Positions 1 through 3,040 of a stretch of 26,419 nt of DNA are shown here, in pieces. The notes under the pieces were generated by a model. That model had not been told where the DNA came from. It worked only from the letters and a program-made list of their open reading frames with translations, and ran no database searches. Location of the stretch: contig JBDRED010000023.1 in NCBI GenBank assembly GCA_043820025.1, positions 1-26,419 on the forward strand, given 5' to 3'. The position numbers and the translations under genes were made by a program. Every line of letters starts with the position of its first letter. Positions within the stretch are counted from its first letter, which is position 1. Source of the stretch: JBDRED01 sp043820025 [NCBI: Elusimicrobiota bacterium]. Lineage in GTDB: Bacteria; RUG730; JBDRED01.

Positions 1-1192
1 AGACATTTACCGCATTATTTAAATATCCTCTATCGTCATAATTAATGCTTAAAGCCGCTGTCTTTGCCTCGCCTAATTGTATCGTATTCGAACCCATTAT
101 TGAGATTGGATTTACTCCAAGGCCTATCTGTTCTACGAAATTATCTAATGAAATATCATCGTCTGTTTTCCATGTATGAGTTACTGTTTCATTGTTTCTT
201 GTAACATCAATATTTAATCCAAGAAATTTATTATTATCTTGAAAAATGGAAGAGACTTTGAAGAGTGTTACCCCCTCTCTCCCCTCAGGGGAGAAGGGAT
301 TTTGTGAGAGGCCTCTTTCTACAGAAGACACAACAGCGTCGAAAGAAACTATTCTGTCATTATTCCATTTTACGTTTAGATAGTTTATTGTGTTCTTTGT
401 TCCCTGCGGGTCTGTTGTGTCTATTGTAAATGATTTAGGAAGAAACTTTGGCGGGCCTATTCCGCTCTTTACAGCGTCAAGGCTTTGCCTATACATATAT
501 TTACTTGAATCATTTGAACATCTTTCCCAAGTCTTCACAAGGTCTTGATATCTACCCACATCTTGACTCTGAATATATGATATATCGCTCATTCTCTGCG
601 TGAATACATTTCCCACTATATCAATAGTATCAAGCCTCATACTGCTCGGCAGATTATTGTTGTATTGAATATCAGACGCCTTATATTGCACGTTCCAATT
701 CATATTGGATAAGGCCATATCAAAGCCTGTGATATTGTCATTTGAGATACTTACATTTGTGAATGTCTTTGGCTCGTATATTTGACTAATTGTAGAGAAG
801 CCTTCCCAAGTTAGATTGTTATCTATCTTAAATCCGCTGTAGTCTGACAGGTTTATATTTGGAGCAACATACGAATCAAGAGTCTGTGTCAGATTGCCGT
901 TCTTTGCCCACATATCAAGCTTACCGGAATAAAGAGAGGAAGATAAAAAATCAGTCCGCGCAGTAATAGCGAATAATCCCACGCTAAAATCATGCGTAAA
1001 GTTTAGGTTTAGTTTAAAGTCAGGCTGTTTGTTATAGTTATTGTATGAGGTTTTGTAATCTGAATTGTATTTATTATTTGCTAAGTAATCCCATGAATAC
1101 GCATTTAAAATTGACGCAGTAATGAAAAGGCAGAATACGAGAATTAATCCTGTTAGTTTTGTTTGATTTTTTTTGTTTCGTAAGACTTGCAT
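1..1192 (-). CDS. Exported protein of unknown function (3' end cut by window edge)
   Basis: A single open frame runs from an ATG at 1192 to the window edge (397 codons, no stop), so the C-terminus is missing. An in-frame TAA lies just upstream and there is no other ATG, which supports this start; the ribosome binding site is weak (GGGA, 7 bases before the ATG). Residues 1-33 look like a Sec signal peptide: a basic start (RNKKNQTK), a hydrophobic core (LTGLILVFCLFITASIL) and likely cleavage near NAYS. The mature part is rich in Asn, Ser, Thr, Asp and aromatics, with alternating polar/apolar stretches (FKLNLNFTHDFSVG) that suggest beta structure. An outer-membrane or surface protein is possible, but I recognise no family. 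Around residues 295-310 the coding sequence carries a palindromic repeat read as NPFSPEGREG. The gene has its own upstream region and is probably separate from the housekeeping operon. Confidence 0.8.
   Translation of the reverse strand, partial: MQVLRNKKNQTKLTGLILVFCLFITASILNAYSWDYLANNKYNSDYKTSYNNYNKQPDFKLNLNFTHDFSVGLFAITARTDFLSSSLYSGKLDMWAKNGNLTQTLDSYVAPNINLSDYSGFKIDNNLTWEGFSTISQIYEPKTFTNVSISNDNITGFDMALSNMNWNVQYKASDIQYNNNLPSSMRLDTIDIVGNVFTQRMSDISYIQSQDVGRYQDLVKTWERCSNDSSKYMYRQSLDAVKSGIGPPKFLPKSFTIDTTDPQGTKNTINYLNVKWNNDRIVSFDAVVSSVERGLSQNPFSPEGREGVTLFKVSSIFQDNNKFLGLNIDVTRNNETVTHTWKTDDDISLDNFVEQIGLGVNPISIMGSNTIQLGEAKTAALSINYDDRGYLNNAVNV
271..311 (+). repeat. Palindromic dispersed repeat inside a coding sequence
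   Basis: The core is TCTCCCCT (278-285), a one-base centre, then AGGGGAGA (287-294): a perfect 8-bp inverted repeat. It is flanked by C-rich and G-rich arms and followed by GTGAGAGG at 304-311. It lies inside the exported-protein gene and is read in frame as NPFSPEGREG without a stop. A diverged relative in the opposite orientation is at 1464-1504. This type of C-rich/G-rich palindrome commonly occurs as a dispersed intergenic element in bacterial genomes. That it inserted into the gene is an inference. Confidence 0.65.
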
Positions 1193-1351: not shown

Positions 1352-1446
1352 TTATTGCGAGGCAATCTCATCTTTAATGTGTCATCCCGGACTCGCCTGC
1401 CCCGCAAAATGCGGGCAATGGGTTAGGCAGTGGTTTTCAGAATCTC
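1352..1446. repeat. Composite of dispersed intergenic repeat fragments
   Basis: The stretch begins with ATTGC-GAG-GCAAT (1354-1366), part of the ATTGCGAG...GCAATCTC type of repeat seen in many bacterial genomes. At 1381 a second familiar element starts with GTCATCCCGG and ends with AATCTC (1441-1446). Inside it is a nested palindrome: CCCGCA (1401-1406), AAA, TGCGGG (1410-1415), enclosed by CTGCC (1397-1401) and GGCAG (1426-1430). Family resemblance is from memory of such repeats; copy number in this genome is unknown. Confidence 0.45.
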
Positions 1447-1463
1447 TAAAAATTTACATCCAT

Positions 1464-1504
1464 CGTCTCACTTCGCGTTCTCCCCTCTATCAAGAGGAGA
1501 GAAC
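1464..1504 (-). repeat. Palindromic repeat related to the one at 271-311
   Basis: GTTCTCCCCTCT (1477-1488), loop ATCA, and AGAGGAGAGAAC (1493-1504) form a 12-bp stem with one mismatch. On the minus strand the second half is followed by GTGAGACG (1471 to 1464), matching the GTGAGAGG tail of the element at 271-311, and both share TCTCTCC and AGGGGAGAA. The two look like diverged copies of one family, in opposite orientation about 1.2 kb apart. Confidence 0.55.
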
Positions 1505-1573: not shown

Positions 1574-3040
1574 TTATTTTATTCTTAATTCGTAGTCGTT
1601 AATATTTATCTTATAATCAAACTGAATATCAATTTTTTTATTTACCTGATCCTCTAATTTTTTTATCTTTTCCTTTGTTAAAAATTGTTTAAAAGCAGGA
1701 TGCAGAAGCAAAAACACAGCTTTGCCATCAATCTTTTCCGATAATTTCACAAGCTCGCGTTTTATTGCCAAGAATATTGTGTCTTGTGAATAAACTCTGC
1801 CGCTGCCATCGCAATAAGGACACTTATCAGAAAGATAGCTGACAATGCTCTCTCTTTTGCGCTGACGCGTCATCTCAATAAGGCCCATTGCCGTGACAGG
1901 CAGTATTTTAATCTTTGCCTTATCATAAAGAGTCGCTTTTTTTAATTCATCCAGCACCTGCTGTCTATGCAGTTTTTTATACATATCAATAAAGTCAATT
2001 ACAATAATTCCGCCTATGTTGCGAAGCCTTAACTGCAGAGCAACCTCTTTAACTGCTTCAATATTGGTTTTTAATACGGTCTGTTCCAGATTTTCAGCCT
2101 TAGCCCTGCCTGAGTTAACATCTATAGCGCATAATGATTCTGCTTCCTGTATGATTATATATCCGCCTGAAGGCAGGTATATCTTTTGTTTCATAATATT
2201 TTCCAGCACCTTATCAATGCCATACGCCTTTAAAATCGGCAGTTTGGATTTATAATACACTACCTTGTCAGCGTAATCAGGTGAAATCATCGAGATAAAC
2301 GACTTGGCCGCATCATACTCGCCCTTTGCGTCTATTACAAATGTATCCACATCGCTTGTAAGCTTGTCTCTGATAATTTTAAAAACAACTCCCAAATCTT
2401 TATGAACAAGCGAATATAACTGCGCTTTCTTTTTTTGTTTCTGTATTTTTGCCCAAATACTTACAAGATATTCTACTTCCCTTTTTAAGACCGCCTTTTC
2501 AACTCCCTCAGCCTCAGTCCTAACTATAAAACCTCCGGTTATTCCATTAACCAATCCTCTCATAATCTCTTTTAACCTTTCTCTCTCTTCGCTTTTTTGT
2601 ATATTTTTTGAAATACCCAAATGATCTTCAAATGGCATATACACAAGCAGTCTGCCGGGCAAAGACACATTCATACTACAGCGCGCTCCTTTAGTGCTTA
2701 TCGGCGCTTTAGTAATTTGAACCGGAATACTGTCTCCTTTTTTTAACTTTGGAGTAACATGTTTCTGAGCCTGTTTCCTATCATACTTATCATTCTCCAC
2801 AATCTCGCTAAACGGCATATATGCCGCCTTATCCATCCCAACCTCGACAAACACAGCCTCAAGGCTCGGAACAACCCTTGAAACCTTTCCAATATAAACA
2901 TTCCCGACTATCGACGACTCATCTTCGCGCTCAATAATCAGCTCCGCAACCTCTCCGTCTTCGAGAAGAGCAATCTTTATCTCTTCCTCTTCATAGTTTA
3001 CCACTATGTCTTTCTTGATTTTCTTAATCTCTTCATTCAT
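1574..3040 (-). CDS. rng: Ribonuclease G (RNase E/G family)
   Basis: Endoribonuclease of the RNase E/G family, 488 residues, the usual size of RNase G without the long RNase E scaffold tail. An S1-like RNA-binding domain is at about 38-125 (GNVYIGKV). The catalytic part carries the two metal-binding aspartates in AIDVNSG (D307) and IVIDFIDM (D349). The Zn-link CPYC (C407, C410) is followed by DGSGRV. The family processes rRNA (the 5' end of 16S in E. coli) and turns over mRNA in the cytoplasm. It starts at an ATG preceded by GGGAG and lies 94 bases after the radical SAM gene. The gap is very AT-rich and could hold a weak promoter, but nothing decisive. This is the last gene of the run before the repeat-rich intergenic region. 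Confidence 0.95.
   Translation of the reverse strand: MNEEIKKIKKDIVVNYEEEEIKIALLEDGEVAELIIEREDESSIVGNVYIGKVSRVVPSLEAVFVEVGMDKAAYMPFSEIVENDKYDRKQAQKHVTPKLKKGDSIPVQITKAPISTKGARCSMNVSLPGRLLVYMPFEDHLGISKNIQKSEERERLKEIMRGLVNGITGGFIVRTEAEGVEKAVLKREVEYLVSIWAKIQKQKKKAQLYSLVHKDLGVVFKIIRDKLTSDVDTFVIDAKGEYDAAKSFISMISPDYADKVVYYKSKLPILKAYGIDKVLENIMKQKIYLPSGGYIIIQEAESLCAIDVNSGRAKAENLEQTVLKTNIEAVKEVALQLRLRNIGGIIVIDFIDMYKKLHRQQVLDELKKATLYDKAKIKILPVTAMGLIEMTRQRKRESIVSYLSDKCPYCDGSGRVYSQDTIFLAIKRELVKLSEKIDGKAVFLLLHPAFKQFLTKEKIKKLEDQVNKKIDIQFDYKININDYELRIK

What the first reader, a model, noticed from the sequence alone, without database searches (positions are those of the whole stretch)
264..322. Palindromic repeat carried in frame inside an exported-protein gene
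A C-rich/G-rich palindrome (TCTCCCCT, centre, AGGGGAGA) sits in the middle of a signal-peptide protein and is translated as NPFSPEGREG with no frame disruption. A relative with the same GTGAGA tail lies in the intergenic region at 1464-1504. This looks like a dispersed repeat that entered a gene and was tolerated, as known for Rickettsia palindromic elements. It may be a route for adding short peptides to surface proteins.
Basis: partly seen in the sequence, partly recalled or inferred. Interest (0 to 1): 0.6.

Follow-up and report, generated by a model that had tools for sequence, protein, structure and literature searches.

The report
Box C-like repeat inside a gene
A short, foldable DNA repeat related to the known E. 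coli 'Box C' repeat sits inside an apparently exported-protein gene and is read as part of the protein; copies of that repeat in plasmid genes of other bacteria also sit in frame and are missing from some relatives, so such repeats can add small peptides to proteins.

Summary
An 8-bp-arm palindrome (278-294) lies in the open frame 2-1192(-), is read as NPFSPEGREG (residues 298-307), and an intergenic relative sits at 1464-1504. It is not a Rickettsia palindromic element. Window 277-311 matches the E. coli Box C / PIT / TM_ECO 'intrastrand triplex' repeat: 27 of 35 columns identical, one gap, a score reached by 1 of 500 shuffles of the window. The 'GTGAGA tail' corresponds to that repeat's third strand, here decayed.

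I tested the idea on other Box C copies instead. In plasmid records they avoid genes, but 8 of 12 gene-overlapping copies examined lie inside genes, all with the frame open. In four of those genes relatives lack the peptide (clear for rfbB, DUF1365 and a biotin-operon hydrolase, weaker for an E2 linker). The hydrolase peptide NPLTLTLSPEGRG resembles the window's NPFSPEGREG. So in-frame Box C presence/absence occurs in other bacteria; insertion in this gene is likely but unproven. 'A route for surface proteins' is not supported: the affected genes are of many kinds.

The parts
2..1192 (-). Host gene: apparently exported protein, 397 aa in the window, open at the window edge; no known family
   Evidence: ORF; no Pfam or NCBIfam family; no relative found in genome contigs, viral contigs or plasmids
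273..311 (+). Box C-like element, 39 nt: CCCTCTCTCCCC - TCA - GGGGAGAAGGG - ATTTT - GTGAGAGG (C-rich arm, loop, G-rich arm, loop, decayed third strand). The alignment itself covers 277-311; 273-276 were added by eye to complete the C-rich arm
   Evidence: local score 36 to the TM_ECO sequence of copies 9/16/19/22 in Table 1 of PMC4666352; 1 of 500 whole-window shuffles reaches 36; best score in the window with the element masked 26
278..294 (.). Palindromic core TCTCCCCT-C-AGGGGAGA
272..293 (-). Short class II intrastrand-triplex motif (6-nt stems, no mismatch), on the strand opposite to the canonical Box C orientation
   Evidence: my re-implementation of the published ITxF rules for classes I and II only; one of two strict loci in the window and the only G/C-rich one; no shuffle control was run for this count
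272..301 (-). Codons for NPFSPEGREG, residues 298-307
1464..1504 (-). Intergenic relative between the neighbouring gene and the host gene: hairpin 1477-1504 (12-position arms, one not Watson-Crick) plus GTGAGACG tail 1464-1471
   Evidence: not a significant Box C match on its own (score 23)
1574..3040 (-). Neighbouring gene, ribonuclease G/E-like (name from reading the sequence, not from a family search)
   Evidence: used to look for relatives (4 distant hits, 33-40% identity)

Best explanation
Window 273-311 is a degenerate copy of a Box C-type repeat (C-rich arm, loop, G-rich arm, loop, G-rich third strand) lying inside the gene in the orientation opposite to transcription. Shown: the sequence match, the open frame, and that other Box C copies lie in frame inside genes of other bacteria, some of whose relatives lack them. 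Inferred: that this copy was inserted into this gene. Mechanism (inferred): Box C copies spread by an unknown route and mostly land or survive between genes. A copy inside a gene survives when the added length is a multiple of three and the frame is one without a stop (antisense frames 1 and 3 are open in 17 of 17 distinct E. coli sequences). It then adds a hydrophilic Pro/Ser/Gly/Arg/Glu-rich peptide, tolerated in loops, linkers and C-terminal tails. The insert is probably neutral for the protein; the third strand decays because coding, not triplex formation, is now selected.
For: Box C match: 27 of 35 columns identical, 7 mismatches, 1 gap, same order of all three strands; 1 of 500 shuffles reaches the score (none of 40). 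A blastn search with window 240-340 finds only weak places (E 0.8-3), but the 8 records are Azospirillum (6), Rhizobium (1) and Escherichia (1), groups that carry Box C; 7 of the 8 are annotated and none of those 7 has a gene under the match (compare). Box C is dispersed there: 276 of 72,556 plasmid records, 1,145 places; in 7 plasmid records chosen from my loci a Box C pattern matches in 7 of 7 and the reversed control pattern in 0 of 7. In-frame genic copies: 12 gene-overlapping places examined, 8 inside the gene and 4 at its 3' end, none with an internal stop. Relatives without the peptide: rfbB 378 aa against 361 in 2 of 2 fetched, and the 24 other rows listed span 1080-1083 nt; hydrolase, 1 of 5 fetched relatives lacks the block in frame, 213 aa; DUF1365, 2 of 3 fetched relatives lack it; E2 linker, 2 of 2 lack the peptide. 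Hydrolase peptide NPLTLTLSPEGRG resembles window NPFSPEGREG.
Against: No homologue of this protein and no whole genome, so neither insertion nor copy number is shown for this gene. The homologue searches in genome contigs and viral contigs need exact 8-residue stretches and reach close relatives only. The bare hairpin is not exceptionally stable (z -0.72). The third strand is decayed: under the published ITxF rules the + strand does not score; only a loosened rule (3 mismatches in a 9-nt stem) fits. The intergenic relative is not itself a significant Box C match. One of 500 shuffles equals the score, and Box C was chosen as the comparison after seeing the sequence. Internal repeats of the protein do not help: one alignment puts a 14-residue gap over residues 297-310 (64 of 2000 shuffles as good; 70 of 2000 with cheaper gaps), but another aligns the same peptide without such a gap to the C-terminal part (36 of 2000). 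The AlphaFold2 model that puts the peptide between two strands has mean pLDDT 36 and is not reliable. Box C copies avoid genes: a CDS under 5 of 54 and 9 of 55 annotated plasmid rows listed and under 0 of 60 E. coli rows listed.
Confidence: 0.6

Rival explanations
1. Ordinary coding sequence: the palindrome and the Box C likeness arose by chance or by codon choice in a native stretch of the protein.
For: Hairpin z-score -0.72; one of 500 shuffles reaches the Box C score; another 39-nt stretch of the gene is nearly as G+C-rich (0.59 against a maximum of 0.62); one internal alignment of the protein includes the peptide without a gap there.
Against: Match over 35 nt in the order of all three Box C strands; a second copy of the GGGGAGA...GTGAGA pair 1.2 kb away; the similar peptide in genic Box C copies elsewhere.
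Confidence: 0.27
2. A functional nucleic-acid signal inside the gene (mRNA hairpin, triplex that stalls polymerases), kept for regulation rather than as a leftover repeat.
For: A strict 6-nt class II triplex motif is present on the coding strand; PMC4666352 reports stable triplexes of E. coli Box C oligonucleotides in vitro and a polymerase-stop band in its primer-extension assay.
Against: PMC4666352 reports no protection in the in vivo footprint and cites an earlier study that found no promoter or terminator activity; here the canonical third strand is decayed; Rfam finds nothing at gathering thresholds.
Confidence: 0.07
3. A member of another small-repeat class: a Rickettsia-type palindromic element or a GTAG/CGTC-tagged REP moved by a RAYT transposase.
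For: In-frame genic palindrome, as in RPEs (PMC10969869, passages); a GTAG tetramer lies at 319-322 on the - strand.
Against: RPEs are about 150 bp, this is about 39 nt; a given tetramer is expected often by chance; the genome could not be searched for a transposase.
Confidence: 0.05

Closest known systems
E. coli Box C = PIT = TM_ECO intrastrand-triplex repeat (PMC4666352; BoxC also in PMC2267715)
   Same: Length class (34-37 nt there, about 39 nt here), order C-rich arm / loop / G-rich arm / loop / GTGAG third strand, G/C-rich; 27 of 35 columns identical with one gap.
   Different: Third strand decayed; lies inside a gene, whereas PMC4666352 reports the 23 MG1655 copies always intergenic; the window's host is not identified (26,419 bases, 37.7% G+C); copy number unknown.
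Rickettsia palindromic elements (RPE; PMC10969869 review, passages)
   Same: Works like them: a palindromic repeat carried in frame inside a protein gene.
   Different: Size (about 150 bp against about 39 nt); no homologue alignment for this gene; sequences of RPEs were not compared.
GTAG/CGTC-tagged REP elements (PMC3733652, listing and abstract start only)
   Same: Small dispersed palindrome.
   Different: No tag-plus-palindrome arrangement shown; transposase link not testable here.

Membership tests
Box C / TM_ECO | Sequence similarity over hairpin and third strand | tested here: met
   score 36, 27 of 35 columns identical, 1 of 500 shuffles as good
Box C / TM_ECO | Three strands able to form a class II triplex under the ITxF rules | tested here: inconclusive
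   canonical (+) orientation fails (fits only with 3 mismatches in 9 nt); a 6-nt strict motif exists on the - strand
Box C / TM_ECO | Many copies in the genome | not testable with these tools
   genome not held; one further, weaker relative in 26 kb
Box C / TM_ECO | Intergenic location (reported for the 23 copies of E. coli MG1655) | tested here: not met
   lies inside ORF 2-1192. Not treated as defining: the BoxC row of the table in PMC2267715 carries no genic or intergenic class (passage), and 8 of 12 gene-overlapping plasmid copies examined lie inside the gene
Rickettsia palindromic element | About 150 bp palindromic repeat of the RPE families | tested here: not met
   element is about 39 nt
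Rickettsia palindromic element | Carried in frame in a coding gene | tested here: met
   frame open through the element
Rickettsia palindromic element | Absent from orthologues | not testable with these tools
   no homologue found
GTAG/CGTC-tagged REP | RAYT transposase in the genome | not testable with these tools
   genome not held

The most novel reading that the evidence does not exclude
Box C-type triplex repeats, described as extragenic in E. coli, are a cross-phylum source of in-frame protein insertions: they recurrently enter genes in the few stop-free frames, seed short Pro/Ser/Gly/Arg-rich peptides ('LSPxGRG', 'PSPxxGEGRGEG', 'PHPxPLPxGER') in loops, linkers and C-termini, or supply new stop codons, and the window holds such an event in a host that could not be placed.
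Probability: 0.45. Interest if true: 0.65.

Novelty: new variant of a known kind. Interest (0 to 1): 0.47.

Why it matters
In-frame palindromic inserts are best known from Rickettsia. If a 36-nt repeat as widespread as Box C does the same, there is a general, easily searched source of new loops and tails in bacterial proteins, and a way to study how small non-autonomous repeats spread, because genes give clean empty sites in relatives. It also warns annotators that peptides of this kind in predicted proteins may be repeat DNA.

Tried and rejected
Homologues of the host protein: none in genome contigs (18 stretches matched a pattern, none confirmed), viral contigs (no pattern match), plasmids (tblastn, E up to 0.01), Pfam or NCBIfam; the phage collection was not searched with it. 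The ribonuclease G/E-like neighbour as bait gave 4 distant loci, no help in placing the host. RAYT (PF01797) matched in 0 of the 4 genomes of those loci, which says nothing about this host. Exact search for the intergenic copy in viral contigs: 0; a Box C-like pattern there: 1 stretch, L005. Two window patterns were uninformative: 0 matches, its gap excluded a 1-nt centre; 1 match with 2 mismatches, 0.34 expected. Structure: single-sequence AlphaFold2, mean pLDDT 36, not used; no fold search was run. Internal repeats in the protein: conflicting, not used as support. Rickettsia palindromic element rejected on size; Rfam negative. Peptide strings typical of translated Box C gave 0 papers. In their listings, and in the passages and sections I opened, I saw no account of Box C carried in frame in genes. 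Papers opened: PMC4666352 (sections 10, 15, 17, 18, first part of 20, and passages), PMC10969869 and PMC2267715 (passages), PMC10845240 (no passage found).

Counts and what was left out: of 14 gene-overlapping rows (5, 9) I examined 12; H237 and H263 (hypothetical proteins) were not fetched, and the same coordinates as H237 carry no gene in a second record of the same length (H238). Each listing shows 60 records of 276 or 84, best place only; 6 and 5 of the 60 had no annotation and were left out of the counts. The two listings share records. Of the 8 internal cases, relatives were compared for 6: four have relatives lacking the peptide; in HlyD and RbbA both strains compared carry Box C-like sequence, so they give no empty site. 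The methyltransferase and the hypothetical protein were not compared with relatives. Of 6 other records with the hydrolase 5 were fetched.

Full report
Observation. The palindrome TCTCCCCT-C-AGGGGAGA is at 278-294, inside an ORF of 397 codons on the minus strand that runs off the window. It is read without a stop as NPFSPEGREG, residues 298-307. As RNA, the intergenic hairpin is exceptional (z below -4) and the genic one is not (z -0.72).

Identity. A search of papers for strings of this kind that I recalled led to PMC4666352, which describes Box C / PIT / TM_ECO: C-rich arm, loop, G-rich arm, loop, G-rich third strand, able to form an intrastrand triplex in vitro, 23 copies in E. coli MG1655, always intergenic there (named sections and passages). 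Aligned to the 17 distinct sequences of its Table 1, window 277-311 scores 36 (27 of 35 columns identical, 7 mismatches, one gap). Over 500 dinucleotide-preserving shuffles of the whole window that score is reached once; with the element masked the window's best is 26. The intergenic copy scores only 23. Triplex potential is decayed: by my re-implementation of the published rules (classes I and II only) the canonical orientation fails, while a 6-nt strict motif lies on the opposite strand at 272-293.

Not directly. No whole genome is held and no homologue of the protein was found. Internal repeats in the protein do not decide: one alignment leaves a 14-residue gap over residues 297-310, overlapping the element (294-307), with 64 of 2000 shuffles as good; another aligns the same peptide without that gap to the C-terminal part, 36 of 2000. 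The single-sequence structure model is unreliable.

Testing the idea on Box C elsewhere. One E. coli Box C sequence finds 276 of 72,556 plasmid records (1,145 places), most in Rhizobium (97), Sinorhizobium (64), Azospirillum (46) and Escherichia (29), 3 of 50,697 phage records, and 5,090 of 5,426 E. coli genomes. In E. coli 0 of 60 listed best places lie under a gene. In plasmids 5 of 54 listed annotated rows do, and 9 of 55 with a second Box C sequence, although genes cover about three quarters of a plasmid at the median (tool description). So the repeat avoids genes but is not confined outside them.

Of those 14 rows I examined 12. Four reach only the gene's 3' end, where the repeat supplies the last codons and the stop (lsrK, DUF3306, DMT transporter, xdhC). 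Eight are internal, all with an open frame: a hydrolase in a biotin operon (PLTLTLSPEGRG), rfbB (PSPLGGEGRGEG), HlyD (PSPPRGEGRGEG, in its C-terminal tail), DUF1365 (PPHPDPLPGGERA), a cyanobacterial DNA methyltransferase (PSPSGRGAGGEG), RbbA (LPLPPGERAGVRG), an E2 acyltransferase (PSPLVGEGRGEG) and a hypothetical protein, cut in my stretch (PPHPDPLPGGERG). Open frames are expected of annotated genes, so this alone proves little. The relatives carry the weight. rfbB of an Enterobacter hormaechei plasmid has 378 aa; 2 of 2 fetched relatives have 361 and lack a 17-residue stretch that contains the Box C codons, and the 24 other rows listed span 1080-1083 nt against 1134. The Azospirillum hydrolase carries a longer block with Box C sequence in 5 of the 6 strains aligned and lacks it, in frame, in A. 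argentinense MTCC4035 (insertion and precise deletion cannot be told apart there). DUF1365 lacks it in 2 of 3 fetched relatives; the third has a different insert. The E2 linker lacks the peptide in 2 of 2 relatives, though linkers vary anyway. HlyD and RbbA give no empty site.

Why it can be tolerated. In the 17 distinct E. coli sequences, antisense frames 1 and 3 are open in 17 of 17 and sense frame 2 in 14 of 17; the other three are open in 5 or 6 of 17. The window copy is antisense to its gene, and its frame gives SPEGREG, close to SPEGRG in the hydrolase, also antisense. The peptides are hydrophilic and rich in Pro, Ser, Gly, Arg and Glu.

Conclusion. The window element is most likely a decayed Box C-type copy carried in frame. 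Presence and absence of this repeat in frame within genes is shown in other bacteria; insertion is inferred here. It works like Rickettsia palindromic elements (PMC10969869, passages) but is too short to be one. Nothing singles out surface proteins.

Noticed in passing
window 1355-1369 and 1381-1431: The same intergenic region holds two other palindrome-like stretches (TTGCGAGGCAATCTC and GTCATCCCGGACTCGCCTGCCCCGC...GCGGG...) that look, from memory, like other widespread small repeats.
   Followed up: no
L005 1-6353 (IMG/VR contig): A phage-like contig (terminase-like ORF by eye) has one exact match to a Box C-like pattern at 981-1001 and, by eye, further such stretches between its genes, although PMC4666352 found E. 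coli Box C not associated with phages.
   Followed up: partly
MG065686.1 and MG065691.1 (phages collection): Two Campylobacter phage records of about 174 kb contain Box C, 3 places each, the best place identical to the E. coli query; host DNA or assembly contamination is possible.
   Followed up: no
L007, L008, L010, L019: Box C copies overlapping the 3' ends of genes supply the last codons and stop of lsrK, a DUF3306 protein, a DMT transporter and xdhC.
   Followed up: partly
L018 469-1662 and L022 303-1472: HlyD-family adaptors of two Azospirillum strains end in a tail made of two Box C-type peptides (PSPPRGEGRGEG ... PLTLTLSPGGRG), and the adjacent RbbA also carries such sequence.
   Followed up: partly
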